Assembly: GCF_051622035.1 (NCBI RefSeq)
Contig: NC_135360.1
Span: 10,406,001-10,470,000 of the forward strand
Length of the DNA stretch: 64,000 nucleotides
DNA from: Arctopsyche grandis
Taxonomy: Eukaryota > Arthropoda > Insecta > Trichoptera > Hydropsychidae
Direction of reading: 5' to 3'
Of this stretch, positions 15,902 to 49,960 are shown in pieces. The notes below the pieces were generated by a model that was given only the letters and a program-made list of their open reading frames with translations, had not been told where the DNA came from and ran no database searches. The number at the start of each line of letters is the position of its first letter. Within the stretch, counting starts at the first letter, position 1. The position numbers and the translations under genes are program-made.

Positions 15902-18900
15902 TTAATGGCCGCCACATTTTGTGGGTGCTGCAAAGTACACTTTTTTCGTTTCAGGATATTTCTTGGGGTCGATTTCTGGATTGTTGCCTTTCTTAATTTC
16001 TCGGGCGAGTTTGCTGAATTCCAAGTCAGTGCAAGGTCTGCAATGTACTGGAGTCTGAAAATATAAAAAATACATTTACATTAAATATACTACTTCTAAA
16101 TTGTTGCTACAAGAATTCTTATGTTTGTAGGTGGATTCAAACACTCACCGGCAATATCTGCAAGTTGTTTCTTCCTCCGCATTGCTTCGAGCAGGCCGGC
16201 AGGCGGGTGTATGTGATGCATAACTGTGTGAGGTCATCTACGAGTTGGACTTGTCTTTGCAGTTGGCAATTTCCTGGAGTGTGTTTCCTGTAAGTTTTGG
16301 TCAAGATGGCATTGGGCTTTCCATTTTCACCAGGGATGGTTTCTTCAGAAGATGAAATGATTTCAGAGTCGGATTTAGGATTGGTGGCTATTTTGTGAGT
16401 GTGTTCATCACTTCTGTCATTATTGTCACCGCTGCCGCTCGTGAATCTGTTTTGGTTGATTGAGGGTGGGACCCATTGTCTGCGGATGCATGTAGCTTGA
16501 TGGTATTCCTGTTGGCGTTGTTTAGTTTTAGCGTCACACTTGGGGTCGACCATAGCCCAAGAGTCTCCGAAGTGTTGATGTTCGCGAACGAAACAGCTTT
16601 GGGGTGTAGCAAGATCATAGAGCTGCTCTCCGCTCATTCCACCGCAAAGACCTTGGGTGTGTCCACTGAAGTAAACGCCTGGTTGCACCAGCACTCGTTT
16701 GACTCCATCGTAGACTACGCGCAGGTTATCGTCGTCAATCTTCACGACAAACTCGCCACTTGGGAGCACAAATGCTTCGAGGAGCAGAATCTGTCTGTCT
16801 TTGCTCCACAGTTCGTACGTGTGGGATTCAGTCAAGGCGACTGTCTTGCCGTTGACTTTGATACCCATATTTTCAATGTCGATGGTAATGAACTCGCCGG
16901 TTCCGGCTCTGTACCAGATAGACGTTTCTTGTTGGCCGTTGACTCTCCGGGTCCTTATGTTGACCTTTCTGGAGTGGTCATAACTTTGTCGTATTCCGTT
17001 TTGAGCCTCTCGGTCGCTCTGCATCAATACGCGGTCGCAGCCAGGTACTTGGTATTCATAGGAAACGTTGCTGAACGTATTGATCCTATTGCCATCAACG
17101 ACACAGGTTGCTGCAAAGAAACAAATAACATAAGAATCAATCAACCTATCATTAATTAATGAAATAATCATCACATTGTAGATACTAACGGTTGAATTGA
17201 CGTCCATAGAATTGTTTTAGAATGCGACGGTACATTGGGACAGATGGTTCTCTAGCAAAGACGCTCTTGACATACGGGCTGGTCACTGGTACATTCTTGT
17301 AGGTAATGCGTGCTGAAGGTAACTGCATTGAAATATTCATTGCGCTCAAGTCAGGTCTGAGATGCACATCCAACTCCATCTGTTGTTCCTTGCCTTTGTG
17401 GGTGATCCAGTCTTCTTCTATATACTGGTAGCCCATTTGGCGAGCTATGTTGTGGAAATTGGTGAGGATATGTTGTAATCTAGAGCTGATATTTCTGTAT
17501 GAAGCTCTCATGGTAACCCTATCGACGGTGCTCTGGAGAGTTACGGCCTTGCGGCAAGCTGGCATCATGAAGTCTCCCTTCTGCATTTCCTGTTCGCACT
17601 GTTTGATCATTGGGTGCTGTTTCAAGTATTCTTTCTGTTCGGGCGATTGGTTCATATTAGCTCCAATGCTAATCTGACATTCATTGAAGATTTTCCTGCC
17701 ATATATGATTTCCAATGTACCTTCAGGATACTTGTTGCACTTCTGAACCTTATTCAAGTTGGTAATAGGGGAGTTGGGGACTTTGGCGGCCATTACAGCA
17801 TTAAATAAGAATGAGGTGTCTCGGATAGAATTTTTGTTATAGTAGAGGATAGCCTGAACCTTCTCATCGACAGAGCTCTGGCAGTATGCGAAGGTCATGG
17901 CATATCTTCCAGTTTTATCCTTTCCGACGAATTTAAGTCCTAAATCAATAACAAATGCTCGTGGATTGCTGATACCAGATGATACAGTGTTCATCATCTT
18001 CTGTCGTCTATTTTGACTGTTCGGGTTGACATCTTGAGACATTTTAGTCACTTCTTCGGATGGAATCAATGGTTGTTTCCTTATTTTATCTTCCTTTTGA
18101 TTTTGTTGGTCTTGCTGATCTATAGTCGTAGTTTTTTTATGGCCATTTAGGTTATCTAAAAACCAAAATGATTTATTTATTAATACAAAATTTAATTTAA
18201 AAAAATATTTATGATATATCTTAAACTAACCGTAATTTACACTGAAGATGATTTTGCGAGCGGGGGATGCTTCAGCCAAGTAGGTGATGTCAGATCTATA
18301 GTACTCAGGATTTCTGACGTGCATATTGAAAATGGTTGGAATGATCTTTTCTTTCAATGGTAATCTGTATCCTGTACTTCCTTCAAATTTATCTGAAGAA
18401 CTTTTAACTTCAAAGACCATGCCCTCTTCGTATCCGTACCTTTCGTCCATTTGGAACTGAGGTTTTCTCTTAATCACGTGCGTGCTTTTTTGTTGTAACA
18501 CTGGCTTCATCACGTTCCTATCGGTGATGGCTGTGAATGGTGACACACTGTGGTGCACGATGAGAGTGTTCTTGTCGCCATTGAGAAGACTCATGGATAC
18601 AACAATGTTACTGTTGACGACGTCGATATCGGCATCAGCTCTGAGTGGCACATTCAATTGTTTCTTGATGATTACTCCAGCGGTGACGTGTTCGTTATGT
18701 TTGTTGACAGTGTTCACGAATCCAATTTTTCCTTCGACGTTTGTGGTGTACAAAAGATTGATGCTGCTGCTGATGTTGACGGTTCGTGGGATGAAGCTAC
18801 CTTCTGGTTTGATCTGGGCACGAACGTCACCTTGGATTTTCACCAAAGTTGGTGTGGTGTATCTGAAGTACAATGGGACTCCCATAACCAATGGGAACAT

Positions 18901-21900
18901 GATGACTGCATCTTCTGTTGTCAAAGTCTTAGTATAATCGTATTTCATTTCATTGTTATTTCCTTGGAACATTTTTGGGAATTCCATCAGTCTTTCTTTG
19001 TCGATCGAGAAGAATCTTTCCTGGCCGAAAAGTTTCAGGAAGAGATTGCCTTCGAATGGTTTCACATGTCGCCTTAGATAATCATTTTCAGGTCCGTTAA
19101 ATAACTTGACGATTTCATCAATACGTTGTCCTTGTCCTTGATGTTGTCCTTGTCCTTGATGTTGTCCTTGTCCTTGATGTTGTCCTTGTCCTTGATGTTG
19201 TCCTTGTCCTTGTCCTTGATGTTGTCCCTGTCCTTGTTGTCCTTGATGTTGTCCCTGTCCTTGTTGTCCTTGTCCTTGTCCATGAGGATATTGTCCGTGT
19301 TGTCCTTGTCCTTGTCCATGAGGATATTGTCCGTGTTTTTGTCCTTTCGATACGATTTCAGCATATATGATATCTAATAATTGGCTAACACTGGAAACAG
19401 AACTTTGCACCTAAAATTTATAAAAACATTTTCAGTTGTTAAATCTGCTCCATTCAACGGAATATAGTATATTAAAAAATATTCCTTAGTATGAAAATCT
19501 TGTGATGAATACCTTGAGTGGGCTGATCCAAGCTCCAAGCTTGCTCCTCCATTTCATTGCAATGGATTTAGGCAGAATGCTATCTTCACTTCCGATTTGG
19601 AAGTAGGACAGATCGTAACCGATATTTTGATCTTCAGATCTATAGCTCCTCAATACGACGTTGGAATATTTGTATCCATAGTGTTCTTTGCTCAACATAC
19701 TAGTAGCGGTACGAGCGTTTCTTGCCCTTAATTTGAAAACATGAAAAATATTGTATAAAATTTATCCGACAAATATATGTGTAACAGTTGATCAAAATAA
19801 ATATTTAAACACGTTAGTTGTACTTACAACTGCTCACATCCAGGCTGTCTCAATCGCGCAGCATCGCTAATCGCAGATTGAATTGCAGATCGAACGTTCC
19901 TGTTGCTATCTGTGTGGGTAGCTTTCGCCATCGACATCAACATGGAAATGGTGGGTCTAGCTTTAAGTAATTTGAAGATTGCAGCAACGCGAACTTCGTA
20001 GTCATCACCTTGGTTGTTGTAAATGTTGAATAAGGTATATCTGACTTTTTTGGGGAATTGTTTTGCGACTTTTTCAAGGTTTTGAACCATGTGGGTGCGC
20101 AAGAATTTGGTCGTACGTTCATTGCTTTCCAAGTATGGTGCAAAGACTTCTAAGATTTTAGGGTGAGCCAAATTTCCGATGGCTTCGATATAGACTTGAG
20201 CTTTGCGAGTGTCTCCTTTAGCGACAGCCGCTTCTAATTTCGGTTTCAAAACGGACAAAACGTTAGATAAGATTTGTTGTTGGTCTCTGGGCACGAGGCG
20301 GCCGAAGATGTGTTGTGGGTAGAGATCGTGCGCTATTCTATCATTAACGTAAACCTTATTAATAAGAGCTGTCGAAGCCAATAAAGCGGTGGTATTCAAA
20401 TGTTCCTGATTTCTAACATCGTTAGAAGCTGCGAAAGCGAAGAAATCAGAAACTATTTTTTTGGTTGGTTGACGAAGCGTCTTTGGGAGAATTGCTACCA
20501 ATTCAGCGGCTTCTTCATTTTGGACCTTTTTCGATTCAATCATTTTTCTGACTTGATTGAAGGCTGGACCAGTTCCGGCCAGAGCCAATGCATCGCGGTA
20601 AAGCTTCCAGGCAGTACGGGCAAGTGGATCTTGGACATTGTACATTTTATCGGTGGTTTGTTGTAAATGTTTGGAATCCATTTGAGATACAGCATTGACG
20701 AGTAAACCTAGCTTACTGGTTGTATCAACATCAGGCATTTGACCAGGTCGTTGGAGTTCCGTTGCGATTTCTTTAGCAATGTTAATTGTGTTTTGTACTT
20801 GAGCTGGTTGTTGTTGTTTGTGTTCTTCGGGCTGCAAGTAAAGTTTATTGGTGATGAGTTCTCTATCATCAGGCACACTATCCCATTTATCGCTGCTCTC
20901 AGAACTGCTGTATGAGCTACTGGATGAGCTGGAGGATGAACTAGAACCGCCTGAAGTCTTCCTTGGTCGTTTTCCGTCTTGCCACTTCTGACTTGGACGA
21001 TAATGATGATTTCCATGTCCTGAATGGTGACCCGATTGTGGGAATTGTTCGTGTCCAGGTATATGCCCACCGTTCTGCCCTGGTTTATTTCCATGGTCGT
21101 GTCCATGAACTTGTCCTGACTCATGACTTCGTCCAGATTGACCGTGTCCGTGATATTTTCCAGGTCGTTGACCTTGTCCTTGTCCGTTTCCATGTCCCTG
21201 TCCGTTTCCATTTCCATGGCCCTGTCCATTTCCATGGCTCTGTCCATTTCCATGTTCTTGGCTATTTCCATGTCCCTGTCCGTTTCCTTGTCCTTGACCG
21301 TTTCCTTGTCCATGGCCATTTCCATGTCCTTGTCCCTGGCCATTTCCGTTTCCTTGTCCTTGGCCATTTCCGTGTCCTTGTCCCTGGCCGTTTCCTTGTC
21401 CTTGACCATTTCCATGCCCTTGTCCCTGGCCATTTCCGTGCCATTGTCCCTGGCCGTTTTCGTTTCCTTGCCCTTGGCCATTTCCGTGTCCTTGTCCCTG
21501 GCCATTCCCGTGTCCGTGTCCTTGGCCATTTCCATGTCCTTGTCCCTGGCCATTTCCGTGTCCTTGTCCCTGGCCATTCCCGTGTCCGTGTCCTTGGCCA
21601 TTTCCATGTCCTTGTCCCTGGCCATTTCCTTGTCCTTGTCCTTGTCCTTGACCATTTCCGTGCCATTGTCCCTGGCCGTTTCCATGCCCTTGTCCCTGGC
21701 CATTTCCGTGTCCTTGGTGATAACCTGGTCCCCATTGTTGTGCATGTCCTTGTCCCTGTTCTTGTCCTGGTTTTTGGGCTTGGCCTGGACGGTGTTCATG
21801 ACCTGGACGTTGATTTTCGTGGATCAAGTGACCATGTCCTGTACCTTGCCATTGCCATTGTCCCTGTCCTTGTTCATCTCCATGTCCCTGTCCTTGTCCA

Positions 21901-23874
21901 TGTCCCTGTCCTTGTCCATGTCCCTGTCCTTGTCCATGTCCCTGTCCTTGTCCATGTCCCTGTCCCTGTCCATGTCCCTGTCCCTGTCCATGTCCCTCTC
22001 CCTGTCCTTGACCGAATCCCCATTTAAAGTCATGTCCGTGACTATTATTGGGCCTATTAATGTCCCACCCAAAGGAACCATTCACCTTTGGTATCAAACC
22101 TGGAAGTGTTATATTTTCTATATGCCAGTTTTCTGGTTGCGCAACATCTAATCCCCAGTGAACAGACGAATTTTTTTTGTTTTGTTTATCTCCGAAAAGG
22201 TTAACTTCATGTGCGTTGTGTATAAGTGGAGAGTCGTTTTGAGGATGCTTTTTGTGGTTATGTTCTTTGTTATCACAATCCTCTTCACGGTGATTTGGGT
22301 CAACAGATCTGAAAATATTTGAAGTAAAAATTTGCGAAACTCTGACATACCTATTATTATTTTGTTTCTGCATTTGAAAATATTGTGACTTACCTGCGGC
22401 TTCTGCTTTTAGCTCCCTGGTTATGCTGTTGATTTTTGATAGGATCCGATGTTTTTTGGTCCTGGGAGCCTTTGTTTTGGCTCGAGGCAATGCTGTACAT
22501 GAGATCTCCAGCTGAACGTGGTGACGATGGTTCTCGAACGGTTCCACTACCGTCATTGATCGATGTCAAAGTCATGTTGACGCTGCTGATAACCATTCCA
22601 TTATTACCATAGAACAGAGGTCGAGCGGCCACGCGATTGGTGAAAGAAGCTGAATAGATGACATCGCTGAATCTGTCAACGACGATGCGTTGGAATGAAG
22701 CACGCTGAAACAACAAAATACATTTAACGTTTTAATTTTCCGCCACAACAGTCTACATGTATTACAATATATCACTTACAGTCATAAAGTTATCTTCTAC
22801 GTTGGCAGTGCGTTCCCAATCAGAACCTTGAGGCACTCCGGAACTATATTCCACTCGTCGTTTACAGTCGCTATAGCTTCTGGTCTTAGTGATATCCAAA
22901 AATTGTCGGTTATTTTTCTTGGCGAGTTTGTCCAATTGGACCAACGGGGCAAGTTTGACATCCTTCATCATGACTATTTGAGGTAATGGTGAGACAGTAT
23001 AGAGAGTCTATGTAACAAATTAGCACAAGTTTAAAATTATATCCATTCATAGCAAAAATAATCAAACGAATACAAAACTCACGTTACACTTTCCAGTGAC
23101 GTCAGTTTCCATTTTGCGGTAAACTCCATTGGTTTTGTCGTCGTTGACGAAAGTGTTACTCTTGTCGACTAAGTTGCTGTTGCTGATGTCGTATTGGATT
23201 GCGCTCAACATACCCTTGAGAAGATTCTCCTCTTGGACTCTCATATCCTTAGGTACAAGTAGCTCTTTTACGAGTCCATTGTTCATTAGAACAGTGAACG
23301 GGTGTTCGATAGCTGGGTATGGTTGATATTTGACGTCCTTTAAGTTGAATATAAAAATTAGTTCAATTATTTTTGGTTAATTGATGGAAAGTTTGCTTTT
23401 TCTGGTTCATCTCACCTGTGGCATTGGTCCGCCCCAGCCGCCAGACAAGTGATGGTTCACTTCTCCATAGGAGGCTTGGGTGAATTGTCCCAGAATACGG
23501 TTTTTATTCGATCCAAACTCCAGCACTAATTTTCCTTTCAGTTGAACTCCGGCCCATTTTCCTTGGGCACTTTCTCCCCCTCCAGACACGCCGAAAGCTG
23601 TCAAGGTGCGAGCATCCACCTGGTAAGTCCTTCTAAATTGTGCTATAATTAAAAATAAATATTTTCAATTTAAATCAACTATTTATATGCTATATAAAAT
23701 AAAAGTAAATGTTATCTCTAAGTACTTACATTCAGAGGTAGCAAAAGTGACTGCGACTAAAGTGATAAAAAAAATAAAGAAAGAATAAGTTATTACAATG
23801 AAACTAAATACTTATATGTATATTTAATGTTATTTTAATTTACCGAGCGCCAACAATACGAAGGCGACCCTCAT
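15902..23874 (-). CDS. Vg1: Vitellogenin 1 with Gly-Gln repeat insertions
   Basis: A yolk-protein precursor: a secreted large lipid-transfer protein, in insects normally made in fat body and taken up by oocytes. Exons in transcript order: 23844-23874, 23730-23756, 23416-23642, 23083-23337, 22780-23007, 22394-22704, 19828-22308, 19513-19726, 18231-19410, 17190-18155, 16149-17110, 15902-16054. The product is about 2344 aa against about 1800 usual. Signal peptide is residues 1-16. The lipoprotein N domain includes LLKGMLSAIQYD, YRKMETDVTGKC and SAGDLMYS. A furin-type RSRR lies at the exon 6/7 junction (residues about 357-360). A (GHGNGQGQ)n linker spans residues about 460-740, then a run of 11 serines. 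The helical domain follows (TRKAQVYIEAIGNLAHP). A second GQGQHQ run spans residues about 1281-1350. The von Willebrand D domain has TQGLCGG. The usual DGXR motif reads DGVKR. Frame is kept across all introns. Confidence 0.95.
19122..19350 (-). repeat. GQGQHQ-coding tandem repeat in Vg1 exon 9
   Basis: About 75 codons built from GGACAA and CATCAA units encode alternating GQGQHQ, with two copies of HGQYPHGQ at the start. It sits between a helical segment (SQLLDIIYAEIV) and IDEIVKLFNG. At the same place Vg2 has a short ordinary linker (KINDKKDNSK). Confidence 0.9.
20895..20958 (-). repeat. Polyserine tract of Vg1
   Basis: Minus-strand AGC/TCN codons encode GGS(11)YSSSESS. Serine runs near the N-terminal third are typical of insect vitellogenins and are phosphorylation sites in known members. 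Mixed serine codons point to selection on the protein and not to slippage alone. Confidence 0.85.
21172..22013 (-). repeat. (GHGNGQGQ)n-coding repeat in Vg1 exon 7
   Basis: About 280 codons. It opens with repeated GQGQGH units (about 22013-21870). A less regular GTGHGH / PGQEQGQ section follows, then a long GHGNGQGQ array to about 21172, ending GQRPGKYHGHGQ. Composition is almost only Gly, Gln, His and Asn. The frame is open and carries on into conserved vitellogenin sequence on both sides, so it is translated. The repeat period is a multiple of three, which also makes long false frames on the other strand. Confidence 0.92.
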
Positions 23875-27092: not shown

Positions 27093-29669
27093 TTACATAA
27101 AGCTATCATTAAAATATGCAATATTAAGTTCTTTATTTGCATATTCTTCTACGGTGACATTATTTAGGTAACTTTGTACATTAGGTTCATTTGGAATATT
27201 TATATAATTGACATTTGGACGACTGACATCCACCTCCCAAATGTTCATCAAACCGAAACTATTCTCTTCAAATTTTCTGGTTACGACGGTCGAATTAGAA
27301 ATGTCTAAAATTGAAGAACGAGTATTACTCTCCGCTATATTGTTTACTATCTTTTCTTTCATTCTTCTTTTGGTATCTGGTGACAGAGTGCTTTCGATAG
27401 ATCTCTTTTTACTCTCTTCATGGATAGTTCTACCGTTGGCTCTGCAACTTCTGTACAATCTTTTCTCCGCATCTGGTGTTTGTTTCACATAATTCTGCCC
27501 ACACGTTTCCAAGCCAATTTTTTCATCTGATCTTTGTATTAACTGTTGGAGCACCATTTTGGAAGTGGACTTACAATCACCAGACGTGTGGTTCTTTACG
27601 TGTTTTCTTAAGCTCGACGGATCCGTGTATCTTTTTGTGCATCCGTCTACTTGACAGGCATACGGTCTCTGTAATCAACATATCCACTTGAAGAAAATTT
27701 CATTTATTTTTAATTTAGACGTGAATTGCAACACTTACGGCATTAAAATGTGTCCTTTGATGTTTTGCACGATCGGAGCTGTTCGAAAACACTTTGGTGC
27801 AACGGGACACTTGACATCTGTACGGTCGCTCACCGGTGTGAGATCTTCGGTGAATTTTCAGATTCTCCAAACGGGAAAAAGCTTTTCCACAACCTGGAAA
27901 CTGTTGATTTCAATTAATACTAAAATTCATCAAACTAATTCGAAAATGGGCACATTTGCTGGTACTCACCGAGCATTTATTAGGTTTGTGTCCCGTGTGA
28001 ACCCTCATATGAATCAGCAGCTTATATCTTGCATTAAAGGGACGCTGTTTTCTAGGACATTCGATCCAAAGACACCCAAATTCTTCTCCTGAAATTAAAT
28101 TAAGTATATTGAAATTTTCTGTAGATATTTCATCATTGCCGATATTGCAAAACTATTTTGCGATGAACTTTCAAAATTGTAATCTATGAACATAAACTGC
28201 GTTCTATTTTATTTGTAATGATGTACCTCAATTGATAGCCTTTTAACTTTCATTGAAAAGGAAAAAGTTCCAAGTGAACTTTTGCGATAAATCATAATAT
28301 GTATGTATAATGATGACTATCAAAACATAAACTGTAAATATATTATGCATGCAATCATTTTAAACGATGTTTTTCACATATTCGTTAGTTTGTAACTATG
28401 CAAATATGTAATAATTATGTATAAAATGTGTTACAATTTATTTAAAAATATTTAGAATCGTAATATATAAAAAAAATCTACTTTAAATAGGAATATTTTA
28501 TTTGATACGATAGATCAGAGATATTTTACATACCTTTGAATGAGTTCACATGAATTTTTTCAATATGTTCAACAAGAGACGTTTGATTATGAAAGGTCAT
28601 ATTACAAGTCCTCCACAGACAAGTTCTGTTACCTATAAAAGAAAAATATTAATTAAATATTCATATTATTCAAAATTTGTTATAATCATTTTTAAAGTAT
28701 TAAATATTAACCTTCTGGATCCATTTGATTAGTACTGCTAACATCTTCTGATGTTTCTTCTGCAACGCTCTCTCCCATAGTTTCCAAATTAGACGAATCA
28801 TTAGTCCAGTATTCTTCAAAACCGATCATATCATCGTCATCTTCATCTTGAAAGTAATTCAGTGAATCTAGATCTGTGATCAGATCGCCTTCAACATCCT
28901 CGGGTTTATTATTATCGAACGTTATACTGTCAAAAAGTTCTGCAAATTCGATACTTTTGCTATCGACGTTTTTTGTATCGTCTTCTAAATTGAGATTTTT
29001 CGGATATATGTATCCGTCTAGGTTGTTCACATCCAACGGCTTATTTTTACTCGAATTTGGATACAAATCCAAATTGTTACAGGTTTGCATGCCAATTTGA
29101 GGCACGGACGCATCTCTGCCTGATGAGAACTTACTGAAGTGCTTAGAGAAAGCGGTTTCTAGAGGAGGCAAAGGACACTTTTCTGATTCTGGGGACAAGC
29201 GATCGGTGAAATTAGAGGAATACTCGCTGAACAGTTCCTTTTCAGCGTACCACAAATTGTCCAAGTCGCAAGATTCATTTTGAGCAGTTTGATTCCATTG
29301 ACACGCTTCCGAAGAAGACGTAACCAACGAGCCATAGTCTGATAGTGTAGTTAAATTATTCTCACTACAGGTGGATTGTTCAGAGCACGAGAAGCTTTCG
29401 TGTCTTCTCATATCGGTTTTGATAGGCGATTCTTCAGCAGGCCAGTAGTTCTGTTCTATCTGGTCGTACTTTGAAGTTTCACAGCTTTCGCTCGCATTTC
29501 TGCCCTTTTCCGATTCCAGCATGAAAAGAGTGTTGAAGTGTAGTTCTAAATCTGATATAGTTTGATATTTCTCATCGTCTATCGACTTATCTTGATTAGA
29601 GACGGTTGGAGAGGAGAAGGGAGCGAACGGGGGTGGTACGAAGAAAGGATAACCAGTTTCGGCGTCCAT
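27093..29669 (-). CDS. GLIS/GLI-similar five-zinc-finger transcription factor
   Basis: A nuclear C2H2 factor of the GLI-similar group (vertebrate GLIS1/3; fly sugarbabe and lame duck are relatives). Exons in transcript order: 28712-29669, 28534-28632, 27970-28088, 27739-27900, 27093-27668; the product is about 637 aa. Residues 1-319 are acidic, Ser/Asn-rich and without a known domain ([13 protein letters not shown] near the end). Five fingers then follow: [74 protein letters not shown] and [19 protein letters not shown]. The linkers HTGHKPNKC and HTGERPYRC and the [14 protein letters not shown] block are diagnostic of GLIS. A C-terminal tail of about 160 aa is unrecognised. The family is sure; which insect orthologue it is is not. 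It sits between the two vitellogenin genes. Confidence 0.92.
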
Positions 29670-43097: not shown

Positions 43098-46000
43098 ATG
43101 AAGTTCGTTTTCGTGATAACTTTGCTGTGTAAGTCCACACAAAAATCACCATCGGCTGATAATTATTTATTGATTGATCTTGTGCTCACATAATTTCTGT
43201 TATAATAAACAGTAGCGGCAGCATTCGCGAACGATGCAGACGACAGGAAAACAAAGGAAGCCCAGCCTGTTTTTCAAGGTGTGGTGCCTATATCAATCGT
43301 CTTAAATTCGACCACTGGCTTCCATCCTTCAAATCGACGTACGTAACAACTTTTAACCAAATTCCTATGCTGAAAGCTCTTTTCGAATTTAATTTGATTT
43401 AAATACTCTTTGTAGATCTTCTAATAAAACCTAGTCCTATCGACAACGGTCATTTAGTAGATCCTCAAAGTTTATAGTGTTGTATTAAAGCCATTTTAAT
43501 TTATGTTAGATAACGTAATTTTTAAATACATATGTAGATCAAGGAAATCAATGGCACAGTGATCAGGTTGACAAATCGCACCAGTCATCGAAATGCATTT
43601 TTTGCAGACGTCCCTCAGATACGTACAGTAGTAAGTCTTTTAAGTTGATTTAATTTTAGGTTTCTAAATGTACACGTGTATATTACATATTACCTTTTTT
43701 TCAGATTGGCATGCCAATAAGAAGTACTCGTACAATGTCGAATTACGTACCTTGACTTCCATGAACACGCACGAAGAGGGTGTCTCCAGCAACTGGGCTG
43801 GCGTCCAAATCAAAGCTAGACTAAGCCTTCACTGCCTCAAAGCCGACAGACTCCGAGGAGAATTCCAAGGGTTTGTTTACGGACATGTGCACCATCAACT
43901 TCCAGGAGGTTGGAATTCCAACTTGCCCGTCCTGCAATATAAGCCATACCCAGGAATGCAAAAACCATTCGAAGTCATCATGAGCGGTGGATTGGTCAAG
44001 GAAGTGTTGGTGAGCAAGGATACCACCCCGGAAGAAGAAAATTTGCTTAAAGGCATTTTGGGCAATTTCCAATATGATACCAGCGAAAGGAGCAATTCTC
44101 GCCACGAAGATAAAAGCAATGGTGTCTTCAGAAAAATGGAACGTGAAGTTAGCGGCAAGTGCGAGGTATTGATATTTCTTAATATGTTGATTATATTAGA
44201 TTTATACACAAATATACTTAAATATATTATATTTTTACAGACGCTGTACGCTGTCAATCCTTTGGGATTGGACATTTTGCAGAGCTCTCCCTACTTGGCA
44301 CCATTCGTTAATGTCAAGAAAATGAAGCAAGAAAATAAAAAATACGTAGTCGATATAAGGAAAACCAAAAACTACGGCAAATGTAATAAACGCGTGGCAT
44401 ACCACTTCGGTGTTCCAGAAGAATCTAGCTGGGAAAACTCCGCTGGCAATTTGATGAAGGTGAAAAAGTGATTGATTTATTAAGAATAATTTGTAAATAT
44501 AATGCCAAAGTGTCAACTCAGACAATTTTGATATTTTAGAGGTCTACTGTTAGTCGCATTATCGCTGATCTGAATAACAACACCATCTACTCGTCGTACA
44601 CGACCGATCAAATCAGAGCCACTCCTTTGATTGGCCAACAATACGCAAATGAAGCCGAAGTTATGAGCAGTGCTAACGTGACTCTGATCGCTGTTGAACA
44701 AAGCATGGAAAATCCCAAACCTCTTGAACTTCGTTCTGCCGGTGATCTCATTTACAGCATCGGATCTAAAAAACAAAGAAACCAACGCGTCGGTGGATCA
44801 TCATCCAGCAGTTCTTCTTCCTCAGAAGAAGATCGCCATGGAAACAATAAAGGTGGCGATCAAGCATCCCATCCCAACTCCATTAGCAAGCATGGAGAGC
44901 AAAACCATAAAGACCAAGGAGATGAACAAAAACCAGCTCGTCGCCAACGACGGTATTGAATTATATAACTTCAAAAAATTATATTTTACGTTGTACTAGA
45001 TATTAATAAGATATTTGAATTATCTCAATACAGATCGGTAATACAGCGTGTGAATACCGAAGACCTTTTGCGATCAAATTTGGATGAGAATATCAAGCGA
45101 ATCCAGGAAGGCAGCAATAGACAGCAAGGCTCCGGCTCAATTCGAGGCTTTAATACGCACTATCCTTCTTCTCGTTCTAGCTCAAGCCATTCATCTTCCT
45201 CCTCGTCTTGTGACTCTGATGATGATGACAGTGGTGATTCATGGCTCGATCTACCCAATATGCAATCACCTTCCATGTCAATTATCAGAAACTCACACGG
45301 CAAACAACCACGCAAGACCCCAGCGGAAATCGCCAAAATCGCACAGAACATTGCTACGGAACTCCAGCACCCGAGTAATATGCCCAATGAGAGCACGTTG
45401 TCAAAAATGAATGGCCTCGTCAACTGGCTGTCAACCATGAATCTTCAAGAATTGGAACAAACTGCCAAGTTGATCGGTCCCCAGGAAAATCGCGCCGACA
45501 ATGTAAAACTGTACGCCTGGAGAGTGTACTTGGATGCTGTTGCTCAAGCTGGAACCAACGCAGCCTTCACCCACATCAAAAACATGATTTTTAAAAATAC
45601 CATCAGGGGTGAAGAAGCAGCTCAATTAGTCGCAGTTATGCCCAGAACCTTGCGCTATCCTACGAAACGATTGCTTTTGGACTTCTTCAAAATGACTTTC
45701 GACACCAGGGTGAAAAACCAATTGCACTTGAATAGTTCGTTGCTGATGGCTTCCACAATCATGATCAACAAAGCTCATGTGAATAGGCACACTGCTCACA
45801 AAAACTTCCCAACTCACATCTTCGGCAGAATGTTGTCCAGCAAGGACGATCTCGTAACCAGCTTTGTTATACCTGAGTTGGAACGAGAACTTAAAACAGC
45901 CGTTCAAAATAGGGATACTCACCGAGTTCAAGTATTCGTGAGAGCTATCGGAAACTTGGGTCATCCTGATATCTTGAGAGTATTCTCACCTTATATCGAA

Positions 46001-49000
46001 AGACGTGTCAAGGTTACCAACTACCAACGCATGTTCATGGTCATGTGTATGGACGAACTTGCTAAACTTTTCCCAAAACAAGCCAGATACACTCTATTCA
46101 ACATTTACAACAACGAAGGTGACAACTATGAAGTGAGAGTCGCCGCTATTTTCGAACTTTTGAAAGCTCGTCCAACTCTCAACATGCTCCAACAAATGGC
46201 TGAAGCTACCCACACTGACTCCAGTATCCAAGTTCGCGCCGCCATCAAATCGGCCATCAAATACGCAGCCAATTTAGGAACACAAGAGAAGAAATTTGAA
46301 AGACTGTTAGTAAATTTTTCTATGGTTACGTTTTTGATTTCACACATGTCAAGAAACTTTAATTTTTTTTCATTTTAGATCGAGATACGCCAAAGCAGCT
46401 GAAAAAATGCTTTCTGAAAAAGAATATGGATTCCAATATTCTGCTAAATACTTACAGTATTACTACTCCAAGAATTTAGGCACAGGACTATTCCAATCTC
46501 TTGGTCTTATCGGAAGTGAAGATAGCATAATACACAAATATTTCACTTACAATTCCAGAGTTAAATTCGGCGGATGGTTGTCACCCAATAGGGTAATTTA
46601 AGAGTTTTTTAACCATCCAATCCTTCAAAAGAACTCTTATTGATATTTATTAATTCACAGGTTCAAGGTGGTGTTTCAAGCATTAGCAAGTTGATTGAAC
46701 TTATCAAGAGTACATTGGATAGAGTAGTCACTAAAATAAATGACAAAAAAGACAATTCAAAACTAACTGCTGATGATATCGCTAAAGTTTTCAACATCAA
46801 GGGAGATCTTCAAGAAGAGCTTCAAGCAAGCTTATTCTTGAAACTGTTTAGCCAAGATCGCATTTTCGCATTCGGAGAACAAAGCTTCCACAATCTTCCG
46901 CGCTATGTTAAGTCCATAGTGCAAAAACTCGAAAATGGTGTCGAATACAACTACAACAAATTCTACAATCAAGAAAATGTTGATATCAGTTTCCCAACAA
47001 TCACTGGCATGCCATTCTTCCTGAAATCCAGAAGCCCAGTATACATCCAGCTTAAAGGCAAGGTTCAAGCTAAAATCAACCCCAAAAACAACAAGGAAGA
47101 CAAACTGAACATACCTAATACAGTGAACGTCACCGGAGATCTTCAACTCGTATTGGCTCGTGACAGCGAAGGAAGAGTTGGCTTCTATTGCCCTATGGGA
47201 GACAAATATATGACATCTGGAGTCATCAGAAAATCCCAAATCAATATTCCACTCAGATCTAAAGTCAATGTTGATGTGATCAATTCTGACGTCTCCGTCG
47301 AAGTCAGCCCCCTGAATCCTTCAGAAGAGTCCAGGTTGTACCACGATAGCATGGACTCTTATACATCGGTTCGAGAAAGAGACTCTACTATCGTTCCAAC
47401 ACAACACAAAGAAACCAAATTCAACCTACCACAACATCCAAAATACGACTTCAACACAATCTACGGAAAAGACACTTTCGGAATGGCCCTCGAAGTAAGA
47501 CAAGTTTATAATTCGCTTCCCCCACAACGATCTCTAAGAGATCAAATTATGGACACCTTTATCGTCATGATCAAACCTCAATCCAAGACATTATACAAAA
47601 ACCGATTAACCACAATCAAATACCAACCACAACAGTCTCAAAATCAACAGATCGTCTTTTCGCTTGGTTACAGTGAGTATTTTTTCGATGATAGTGTCTT
47701 ATTACATATTAAAACAAAACGATAATCATTTTTTTCCTTTAGACACCCAAGAACCACATCCCGTTAAAGGTGCTTGGTCGCCATCAGACAAAGTAATTTC
47801 TCAATACCCCTCTGATGTCAGCTGTGGTAGCAAAGCTCGCCAACAACAGTTGTTGGAAACAGCCGTATTTGGAATCCCAGAAGGACAAGGATACATTCTG
47901 GATGTTGGAGTTCAATGCCTTGGAAAAGCTAATGCTCAATTCTCTGCCTCGATCGCACGAGGCAACAGCAAATTGGACGAGAGATCCCGACTGATCTTCT
48001 TCTATAACCATCAAACCGCCAGCGGCAAACCATTCCAAGCCTACTCCGTGATCTCCGCCAAGATGCCCACAGTACCCACCTTGGACTTTGTGAAGGCACT
48101 CGAATTTAACTCGAGCCTTGACTTCGATATGATTTTGAAATACGGAGAATCCGTGAACAACGGAGCTGTAGTCACCATGAAAGGACAAATGAGCCAGACC
48201 CCCGATAGAAAGGAATACTTGAAAAACGCACCCATGGCTAAGCTTTGCGAGTTGGAAATGGCCAGTGGAAACTTCTTGATGCCCGCATGCCAAAATGTCA
48301 CTATTCGCGCCAATGTAATGAACGCTCTGTCCGCCGACGTTCAATACAACAACATTGGTGATGGAACCAGACGATTGGCCTACTTAGCTCACCATCTGAT
48401 CAGACACCACTTATACTATAATATCAGAGACGACTGGTTAAAACAAACCAAACCTGGAACTATCCAATTCCAGGCCGATTTCGGTCCTGCAATGAACGGA
48501 CTAGTTTCGGTTATGAGTACTCCCATCGTTGAAGTTCAATACATCAATTTCCATCTGAGCCAATGGGGCAAGGCGATCGCTGGAATCGTCATGAACCCCA
48601 CCGTTCCCATGTTCAAACAATACGCCGATCGAGTCTATGGATACCAATATCAACGTAAGTTTCAAGATCAATGATGTTAACTTGTTTAAATTGAAGCTTA
48701 ACTTTTTCTTTTTTTAATAGCAACTTGTGCTATTGATGGAAAGTCTGTCAACACGTTCTCTAACCAGACTTACAAGTACGCCGTCGGAAATTGTTGGCAC
48801 GTAGCTATGCAAAATGGATCTCATGTCGTAGACGCCGCTGGACAATCTTCAGGCGTCTTCTCCGCTCTTCAACAAAGTTCTGTTTTAGTAAAGGGAAATA
48901 ACGGCAAAAAAGACTTCTTGGTCACCTACAGGTGCTTACCATACCATACACCTAACCTTTACATTTTAGATTTTTGCTAGCTGTTTTACTTATAGATATA

Positions 49001-49960
49001 CGCATTTTCAGATCACTTTCGGGAGATGATATAACCATCGAATACTATCAAGGCGATAACATACTGGTGAATAAGAAACAAGTTCAACTCACCCATGGAA
49101 AATCCGTGTATGAATGGACCAAGGACAAGAAATCTAAGCTCATGGAAGCTTACATGATCAATGGCGAATTAACCATCAACGTTGACAACGAGAAATTGAC
49201 CATCATTTCCAATGGAGATCGTATGCTCATCTCAGTCAGCGATTCTTATCGCAACACGACCAGTGGTTTATGCGGAGATAACTCAGGCGATTCCAAATTC
49301 GATCTGGCAACTCCATCCAATTGCTACATGTGCGACAACACCTTGTTCGGTGCCACCTGGGCTATGACTAACGATCAATGCGATCCTCAAGTTAAAGAAT
49401 TACAACAACAAGCCAATGCCGTACCTACCGTGTGTCATGAACAGATCACTCCGTCTGTCCAACCACCGAACATGGACAACGGTGAGTCCCACACTGATTC
49501 ATCTCATGACCACCAAGAAGGATCCCACCAAGAAGGATCCCACCAAGGAGAAAGCCAAGATCAGAAGAAAAAGGAAGCAGAACGAAAGAAGATCCGCCAA
49601 AGCCACACTGTCTGCCAAGTTCGCTCCACCGTACAACTATACGAAGAGAACAGTGAAATTTGCATTACTGAACAACCCATACCAGCATGCAGCAACAAAT
49701 GCCAAGAAGGTGATCTTTACGAGATGACTGTAAGTACAATAAATAAAACTTTAAGTAAAATACCTTTAACAGTACATGAATTAATTGACTAATCCAAACG
49801 TTTCAATTTAAAGGTTGGAGTCGTCTGCCAACCGAATACCAATCAAGAATTCCAGGCCATGAAGAAGGCGGTTGAATTGGGTGAGGATATCCAGTTAGAC
49901 AAAACTAAGTACAAGGCAACCCGAGAAGATTACTACATGGTTCCCAAAACGTGCAAATGA
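43098..49960 (+). CDS. Vg2: Vitellogenin 2
   Basis: A second yolk-protein precursor of about 1920 aa, near normal family length. Exons: 43098-43128, 43213-43342, 43608-43630, 43705-44165, 44241-44459, 44540-44952, 45034-46305, 46379-46592, 46661-47672, 47743-48654, 48721-48931, 49012-49729, 49814-49960; all junctions keep frame. Signal peptide MKFVFVITLLLAAAFA. The N domain has YSYNVELRTLT, ENLLKGILGNFQYD and FRKMEREVSGKCE. Two serine tracts flank a furin-type RQRR at the exon 6/7 junction. The helical domain has HRVQVFVRAIGNLGHP and ARYTLFNIYNN. The von Willebrand D domain is split by an intron and has TTSGLCGD; the DGXR position reads NGDR. Exon 1 (31 nt) and exon 8 (214 nt) have the same length as in Vg1. 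Vg2 lacks the Gly-Gln repeats. Confidence 0.95.
43608..43630 (+). other. 23-nt micro-exon of Vg2
   Basis: Preceded by ttttttgcag and followed by gtaagt. It is the only way found to join exon 2 (ending at 43342) to the exon starting ATTGGCATGC in frame; the product around it reads RPSDTYSNWHANKK. Skipping it, or using the donor at 43338, breaks frame. Confidence 0.7.

What the first reader, a model, noticed from the sequence alone, without database searches (positions are those of the whole stretch)
21172..22013. Silk-like (GHGNGQGQ)n linker of about 280 residues inside vitellogenin 1
Vg1 exon 7 carries a long Gly/Gln/His/Asn array between the furin-type site and the polyserine tract. Known insect vitellogenins have polyserine there, and Vg2 in this window has only about 60 residues. 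The frame stays open and conserved sequence follows, so it is translated. Such a His-rich, low-complexity linker could bind metal, phase-separate or form a fibrous or adhesive yolk or egg-coat component. That role is inference.
Basis: partly seen in the sequence, partly recalled or inferred. Interest (0 to 1): 0.82.

Follow-up and report, generated by a model that had tools for sequence, protein, structure and literature searches.

The report
Caddisfly yolk protein with glycine-glutamine arms
One of two yolk-precursor genes of a net-spinning caddisfly carries two long glycine-glutamine-histidine repeat stretches where the relatives compared have much shorter linkers; the repeats look protein-coding, but their role is untested.

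Summary
On the minus strand a complete 12-exon vitellogenin gene (Vg1, 23874-15902, 2344 aa) carries a 287-residue Gly/Gln/His/Asn array (A, 22019-21159) between a furin-type site (RSRR) and the polyserine tract. All 36 GGACAA-like 12-mers found in the window lie in these arrays, in the Gly-Gln frame. The window is very probably Arctopsyche grandis (Trichoptera): the NCBI Vg2 protein of that species is encoded here. The linker is 540 aa in Vg1, 161 in Vg2 and 16-164 in 39 homologues; the loop holding B is 85 aa against 21-36 in 28. In A glycine never leaves its alternate register, and in its oldest block third codon positions vary most, which suggests selection on composition; B shows no such sign. 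"Silk-like" is not supported. Best reading: a real, disordered, nearly uncharged, His-bearing expansion that becomes an N-terminal arm of the large yolk subunit. Composition resembles the antifungal tenecin 3, and charge would rise at yolk-granule pH; both roles are inference. Transcript, protein and orthologue evidence could not be obtained.

The parts
15902..23874 (-). Vg1 vitellogenin gene, 12 exons, 2344 aa, coding part
   Evidence: All 11 introns GT-AG, one open frame ending in TAA (model built by hand); Pfam matches on exons; exon 7 matches honey bee Vg 9enr by sequence, E 1.7e-60
19828..22308 (-). Vg1 exon 7 (2481 bp): end of furin-type site, array A, polyserine, alpha-helical subdomain
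22308..22404 (-). Furin-type site RSRR (residues 357-360), last Arg codon split over the exon 6/7 junction (intron included in these coordinates)
22020..22307 (-). Pre-array segment (residues 361-456) with N-glycosylation sequons at residues 384, 406, 425, 436 and 447
21159..22019 (-). Array A, residues 457-743, alternating Gly-x (x mostly Gln, His, Asn)
21879..22019 (-). Sub-array A1, (GHGQGQ)n, 18-bp unit; limits approximate
21159..21713 (-). Sub-array A2, (GHGNGQGQ)n, 24-bp unit, more diverged; array A holds an 83-bp exact match at a lag of 72 bp
20892..20945 (-). Polyserine tract kept in Vg1, residues 815-832
19126..19335 (-). Array B, residues 1284-1353, Gln/Gly/His-rich, in exon 9, ahead of the open beta-sheet
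   Evidence: AlphaFold2 pLDDT 27-42 in the 10-residue blocks that cover it
43705..49960 (+). Vg2, the neighbouring vitellogenin without such arrays (first exon not determined)

Best explanation
Shown: Vg1 is an intact vitellogenin gene with two in-frame Gly-Gln/His arrays, of 287 and 70 residues, at two sites that are much shorter in the homologues measured. Inferred: both are translated and intrinsically disordered. The hexamer GGACAA expanded by slippage and duplication in the inter-subdomain linker and again in a loop ahead of the beta-sheet, and composition (Gly at every second place, uncharged Gln/His/Asn between) has been kept by selection in the older part of A. After cleavage at RSRR the small subunit (calculated 40 kDa with signal peptide) is separated, and array A becomes part of a long N-terminal arm on the large subunit (calculated 220 kDa), with array B as a second arm on the same subunit. 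Most likely work: a soluble, nitrogen-rich, easily digested spacer in addition to the polyserine, near neutral in haemolymph and cationic when the yolk granule acidifies (calculated -1.4 at pH 7.4, +26.6 at pH 5.5 for A), which would loosen packed vitellin for degradation.
For: Gene model complete, 11 of 11 introns GT-AG, 0 internal stops. Pfam and honey bee Vg matches; the exon 9 model matches 9ens, 9enr and 1lsh by fold. Gly at 122 of 144 even and 0 of 143 odd places over 861 bp, so no indel has left the dipeptide register shifted. Non-modal bases per column of the 143 hexamers: 15, 13, 44, 35, 9, 92; within each codon the third position is highest. Unit-to-unit pN/pS of A2 0.31-0.68 at the 7 lags tried, 0.31 at the 24-bp unit; the same DNA in the other two sense frames 1.9-4.6 at the 3 lags tried. 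Linker 540 aa against 16-164 in the 39 of 42 homologues measurable, loop 85 against 21-36 in the 28 of 42 measurable, Vg2 linker 161. Low AlphaFold2 confidence and no secondary structure over both arrays. Only 12 charged residues other than His (K 1, R 3, D 1, E 7) in A and 0 in B. Nitrogen atoms per residue 1.64 and 1.74 against 1.44 in the rest of Vg1. Cleavage at R-X-R/K-R into small and large subunits is described for insects outside Apocrita (PMC5849359, passages); yolk-granule acidification is a checkpoint before vitellin breakdown in Rhodnius (PMC10008894, passages).
Against: No transcript or protein evidence. No orthologue of Vg1 was found in the protein database, from this species or any other, so conservation of the arrays is unknown; these searches are limited (see Tried and rejected). 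Array B shows no sign of purifying selection (pN/pS 1.0-1.8) and almost no synonymous variation (GGA 24 of 24 Gly codons, CAA 30 of 32 Gln codons), so it looks young and may be neutral. Over the whole of A, degraded middle included, pN/pS is 0.46-0.78. Repeat units are not independent and no significance test was made for pN/pS. AlphaFold2 had few or no homologous residues over the arrays, so low confidence is weak evidence of disorder. An in-frame splice-site-like pair that would remove A and the polyserine exists. The pH role is computed charge only.
Confidence: 0.5

Rival explanations
1. Neutral slippage. The linker and the loop tolerate any soluble disordered filler; GGACAA hexamers expanded by replication slippage and unequal exchange, and the arrays do nothing beyond adding digestible mass.
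For: Array B is nearly pure at DNA level and shows no constraint; A1 is 93% pure; an 83-bp exact match at a lag of 72 bp within A shows recent duplication; linkers vary in length among homologues, 16-164 aa.
Against: Register of A never left shifted in 861 bp; A2 pN/pS 0.31 at its unit length against 4.6 and 2.2 in the other sense frames; Lys, one step from Gln codons, occurs once in 287 residues of A while Asn, one step from His codons, occurs 28 times, though duplication of units inflates the Asn count; same repeat type gained twice in one gene, all 36 of 36 such matches of the 64-kb window.
Confidence: 0.3
2. Cryptic antifungal or metal-binding arm. The arrays work like the Gly/His/Gln-rich antifungal peptides of insect haemolymph (tenecin 3, holotricin 3) or the Zn-binding shepherins, protecting eggs against moulds, or carrying zinc or copper to the egg.
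For: Composition cosine of array A with tenecin 3 0.95 and with holotricin 3 0.87 (sequences as printed in a table passage of PMC5715947); 35 His in A and 10 in B; shepherin I binds Zn(II), forms fibrils and becomes antifungal (PMC10698721, abstract and section list); honey bee Vg carries zinc (PMC9804912, abstract in search listing and passages).
Against: Similar composition is easily convergent; array B is less similar (cosine 0.84 and 0.65). Tenecin 3 and holotricin 3 are full of Gly-Gly (13 and 29), arrays A and B have none. No sequence alignment with them was made. No second furin-type site frees the arm as a peptide (RX[KR]R only at 357 and 2026). No binding or growth assay.
Confidence: 0.1
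3. Phase-separating arm, as in squid-beak histidine-rich proteins: His deprotonation drives condensation of vitellin into yolk bodies.
For: GHG occurs 25 times inside array A, 27 times in Vg1; His switches charge in the relevant range; the beak proteins are His-rich and disordered and use His as a pH switch (PMC6884462, passages).
Against: The motif shown to be needed there, GHGxY with two Tyr, occurs 0 times; array A has 1 Tyr in 287, B has 2, both in HG-x-Y. Replacing one of two Tyr abolished phase separation in a beak peptide.
Confidence: 0.07
4. Exitron: the array-containing piece is removed in frame from some or all mRNAs, so that the mature protein has an ordinary linker.
For: In exon 7 a donor at nt 223 (score 8.2) and an acceptor at nt 1477 (4.6) lie 1254 bp apart, a multiple of 3, on either side of array and polyserine. 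When each of the 15 real sites is left out of its matrix, 4 of 15 acceptors score 4.6 or lower and 10 of 15 donors score below 8.2.
Against: With the full matrix the 15 real acceptors score 6.1 or more. Exon 9, the only control exon scored, has comparable acceptor-like sites (5.8, 4.4) and weaker donor-like sites (6.4), so the pair is not clearly above cryptic level. Inside array A the best acceptor scores -3.1. Coding constraint inside A2 would not be expected in an always-spliced piece.
Confidence: 0.05

Closest known systems
Insect vitellogenins with polyserine linker (honey bee Vg, PDB 9enr/9ens; lepidopteran Vgs)
   Same: Same domains, linker between beta-barrel and alpha-helical subdomains at the same place, same fold of the array B domain
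   Different: Linker 540 instead of 16-164 aa (39 measured) and filled with Gly-x repeats; a second array in a loop that is 21-36 aa in 28 measured
Tenecin 3 and holotricin 3 (Gly/His-rich insect antifungal peptides)
   Same: Gly 43.6 and 63.1%, His 19.2 and 15.5%, Gln in tenecin 3 16.7%
   Different: Free peptides of 78 and 84 aa, Gly-Gly rich; array A is Gly-x without Gly-Gly and embedded in a yolk protein
Shepherin I (plant Gly/His-rich peptide)
   Same: Gly/His-rich; metal binding plausible by analogy
   Different: GGH repeats (from a reference title); GGH occurs twice in Vg1 and in neither array
Squid histidine-rich beak proteins (GHGxY repeats)
   Same: GHG motif, probable disorder, His as possible pH switch
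   Different: No GHGxY, 1 Tyr in A and 2 in B

Membership tests
Vitellogenin (large lipid transfer protein) | Vitellogenin_N, open beta-sheet and VWD domains in order | tested here: met
   Pfam E 2.4e-85, 1.7e-24, 7.2e-13 on exons 7, 9 and 11; fold of exon 9 like 9ens, 9enr, 1lsh
Vitellogenin (large lipid transfer protein) | R-X-R/K-R site near the N-terminus | tested here: met
   RSRR 357-360; whether it is cut is not known
Vitellogenin (large lipid transfer protein) | Polyserine tract(s) flanking that site (common, not universal) | tested here: inconclusive
   One tract after array A, residues 815-832, 454 residues from the site; none before the site in the sequence
Vitellogenin (large lipid transfer protein) | Fat-body synthesis and deposition in eggs | not testable with these tools
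   No expression data
Silk fibroin-like repeat | GAGAG or SXSX phosphoserine motifs | tested here: not met
   No GAGAG; S-x-S-x-S-x only in the polyserine. Motifs named from recall; caddisfly fibroin not compared
Tenecin 3 / holotricin 3 type antifungal peptide | Gly/His-rich with many Gly-Gly | tested here: not met
   Composition of A similar (cosine 0.95 / 0.87) but 0 Gly-Gly in the arrays against 13 and 29
Tenecin 3 / holotricin 3 type antifungal peptide | Inhibits yeast | not testable with these tools
   Needs a bench assay
Squid-beak histidine-rich protein | Repeated GHGxY with at least two Tyr | tested here: not met
   0 GHGxY in Vg1

The most novel reading that the evidence does not exclude
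Vg1 of Arctopsyche is a bifunctional yolk precursor: the same pH-responsive, metal-binding Gly-Gln/His polymer was gained at two separate sites of one vitellogenin and selected for, giving the large vitellin subunit two defensive or packing arms that work beside or in place of polyserine, a linker chemistry that no paper in my search listings reports for a vitellogenin by title or abstract start.
Probability: 0.15. Interest if true: 0.75.

Novelty: new variant of a known kind. Interest (0 to 1): 0.5.

Why it matters
Insect vitellogenin linkers are known for polyserine. A yolk protein with two Gly-Gln/His arms, beside a paralogue without them about 20 kb away, is a natural test of what the linker does, and of whether low-complexity filler in an abundant secreted protein is selected for composition or merely tolerated. 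It also shows two separate sites of one protein gaining the same kind of repeat.

Tried and rejected
Homologue searches for a Vg1 orthologue: exon 7 with its conserved part (17 hits, only the 7995 candidates sharing most words scored), whole Vg1 with region 850-1282 (27 hits among 5497 candidates), post-array piece for fragments of broken assemblies (1 hit among 7790 candidates). No hit was Vg1 and none had the array; besides A. grandis Vg2 (P0003) and a piece that by eye resembles Vg2 (P0002) they were other named insects and unnamed sequences. The negatives are limited: candidates must share 5-residue words and lie within 0.55-1.75 of the query's length, and one search missed relatives in its own length range that one search had found (P0002, P0010, P0011 and others), so it was insensitive. 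No annotated Vg1 of this species appeared.

Assembly artefact: not testable without reads. The earlier assembly of the species is listed with contig N50 6.47 Mb (PMC12576367, passages), while the contig behind the NCBI Vg2 record is 34.75 Mb, so the window is probably from a later assembly whose read type I did not see.

Splice-out: see rivals. Silk: rejected by motifs. Pfam: TrAA12 matches the A1 part of exon 7 above its curated cut-off (37.8 against 30.9 bits, E 9.4e-10), but no single stretch passes; SR-25 matches the polyserine region below its cut-off. I take both as low-complexity matches; not followed. Literature: five searches with vitellogenin and terms for Gly-, Gln- or His-rich repeats, caddisfly or polyserine; seen were 1 of 1, 20 of 28, 20 of 216, 30 of 111 and 15 of 48 papers as listings; most subscription journals are not held.
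Full report
WHAT IS THERE. The minus strand from 23874 to 15902 holds a complete vitellogenin gene, here Vg1: 12 exons, 11 of 11 introns GT-AG, 2344 codons without internal stop (model built by hand). Pfam finds Vitellogenin_N, Vit_open_b-sht and VWD on its exons; the only solved structure matched by sequence with exon 7 is honey bee Vg 9enr (also 9ens), E 1.7e-60. Exon 7 (22308-19828) holds the array that was reported. I set its limits at residues 457-743 (22019-21159), 287 residues: Gly 42.5, Gln 24.7, His 12.2, Asn 9.8%. It consists of (GHGQGQ)n with an 18-bp unit, a degraded middle, and (GHGNGQGQ)n with a 24-bp unit.

A SECOND ARRAY. Exon 9 holds 70 residues, 45.7% Gln, 34.3% Gly, 14.3% His (1284-1353; 19335-19126), not in the finding. 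A scan for GGACAAGGACAA with up to 1 mismatch gives 36 hits in the window, mean 0.18 in shuffles; all 36 are on the minus strand inside the two arrays, 24 in A and 12 in B. From their coordinates all 36 are in the Gly-Gln frame. In A histidine stands at the x places of Gly-x; in B it often takes the place of a glycine, so B is not a simple copy of A; they share words of 22 but not 24 bp (even lengths tested).

THE ORGANISM. The NCBI protein P0003, 'vitellogenin-like [Arctopsyche grandis]', is Vg2 of this window: 30 of 35 sampled 30-residue words are found in the + strand translation from 45260 on; the other 5 are not found as one piece, as expected where words cross introns. A. grandis is a caddisfly of the Hydropsychidae. 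P0003 as held begins within the window's exon 45034-46305 and lacks the upstream coding exons found here.

IS IT UNUSUAL? Against 42 homologues, aligned with Vg1, the stretch between the conserved 'SAGDLMYS' and the first helix of the alpha-helical subdomain is 540 aa in Vg1 and 16-164 aa in the 39 where both ends are present (dropped: P0002, P0003, P0029, cut at that place). In Vg2, assembled by hand, it is 161. The loop with B is 85 aa against 21-36 in the 28 measurable (the other 14 do not reach it or are cut there). The 39 linkers have 0-11% Gly against 27% in Vg1. All homologues with an organism name are insects; a good part are unnamed. The only caddisfly sequence among the named ones is Vg2 of this species.

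IS IT TRANSLATED? The conserved sequence before and after array A is in one frame, and the dipeptide register is never left shifted over 861 bp: glycine at 122 of 144 even and 0 of 143 odd places. An open frame alone says little, since three of six frames have no stop over the array. Variation among the 143 hexamers is concentrated at third codon positions: non-modal bases per column 15, 13, 44, 35, 9, 92. In A2 the unit-to-unit pN/pS is 0.31 at the 24-bp unit, 0.31-0.68 over the seven lags tried; the same DNA read in the other two sense frames gives 1.9-4.6 at three lags. A1 gives 0.29-0.77 on few differences, the whole of A 0.46-0.78. Array B gives 1.0-1.8: no constraint visible. Units share history and I made no significance test, so this is support, not proof. 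A scan with a small matrix from 15 introns finds no good acceptor inside array A (best -3.1), but one in-frame pair around it (8.2 and 4.6) that is not clearly above cryptic level.

HOW IT MAY WORK. AlphaFold2 gives no secondary structure and pLDDT of 22-43 in the 10-residue blocks over the stretch before the alpha-helical domain, and 27-42 over B; the helical domain is modelled well and the beta-sheet mostly so. B lies between two short helices (residues 14-25 and 97-105 of exon 9) that are themselves of low confidence, ahead of the sheet; the domain matches 9ens, 9enr and lamprey 1lsh. Insect Vgs outside Apocrita are said to be cut at R-X-R/K-R into a small and a large subunit (PMC5849359, passages). 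For Vg1 this would give calculated 40 kDa (signal peptide included) and 220 kDa, with array A in the N-terminal arm of the large one and B on the same subunit. Array A is nearly uncharged at pH 7.4 (-1.4) and +26.6 at pH 5.5 by simple pKa values. Yolk granules acidify before vitellin is broken down in Rhodnius (PMC10008894, passages). My best guess is therefore a soluble nitrogen-rich spacer that turns cationic in the acidifying granule and opens the packed protein to acid hydrolases. The steps from translation onward are inferred.

RIVALS. Neutral slippage remains strong, above all for B. A defensive or metal-binding role rests on composition: cosine 0.95 of A with tenecin 3, 0.87 with holotricin 3, but these are rich in Gly-Gly, of which A and B have none, and B is less similar (0.84, 0.65). 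Shepherin I shows that Gly/His chemistry can bind Zn(II), form fibrils and act on yeast (PMC10698721, abstract). Arctopsyche and Hydropsyche are used as metal monitors (PMC10883540, abstract start in the search listing), which sets the metal test in context but is no evidence. Phase separation as in squid beak needs GHGxY (PMC6884462, passages); Vg1 has none.

VERDICT. Real, probably coding, a new variant of a known kind, and clearly unusual among the vitellogenins compared; function open. The 'silk' label should be dropped, and the second array added.

Noticed in passing
window 19126-19335 (-): Second Gln/Gly/His array in exon 9 of Vg1, nearly pure at DNA level (GGA in 24 of 24 Gly codons), not in the finding.
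   Followed up: yes
window 49510-49547 (+): Vg2 carries a pure 15-bp repeat (2.5 copies) that codes for Gln-Glu-Gly-Ser-His words near its C-terminus (sequence).
   Followed up: no
window 22020-22307 (-): Five N-glycosylation sequons (residues 384, 406, 425, 436, 447) in the 96 residues between furin-type site and array A.
   Followed up: no
window 15902-49960: Vg1 and Vg2 are divergently arranged, about 20 kb apart. An ORF between them (27093-27674, minus strand) has a weak C2H2 zinc-finger match, 21.1 bits, below the Pfam cut-off of 25.2.
   Followed up: no
window 43705-46305 (+): The NCBI Vg2 protein as held (P0003, 1419 aa) starts at 45260 and misses upstream coding exons that are present in the window.
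   Followed up: partly
window 21159-22019 and 19126-19335 (-): The sense strand of both arrays is purine-rich (A+G about 73% in A, 70% in B) with GG in many hexamers, a pattern that might form two-quartet G-quadruplexes in the mRNA (inference, not tested).
   Followed up: no
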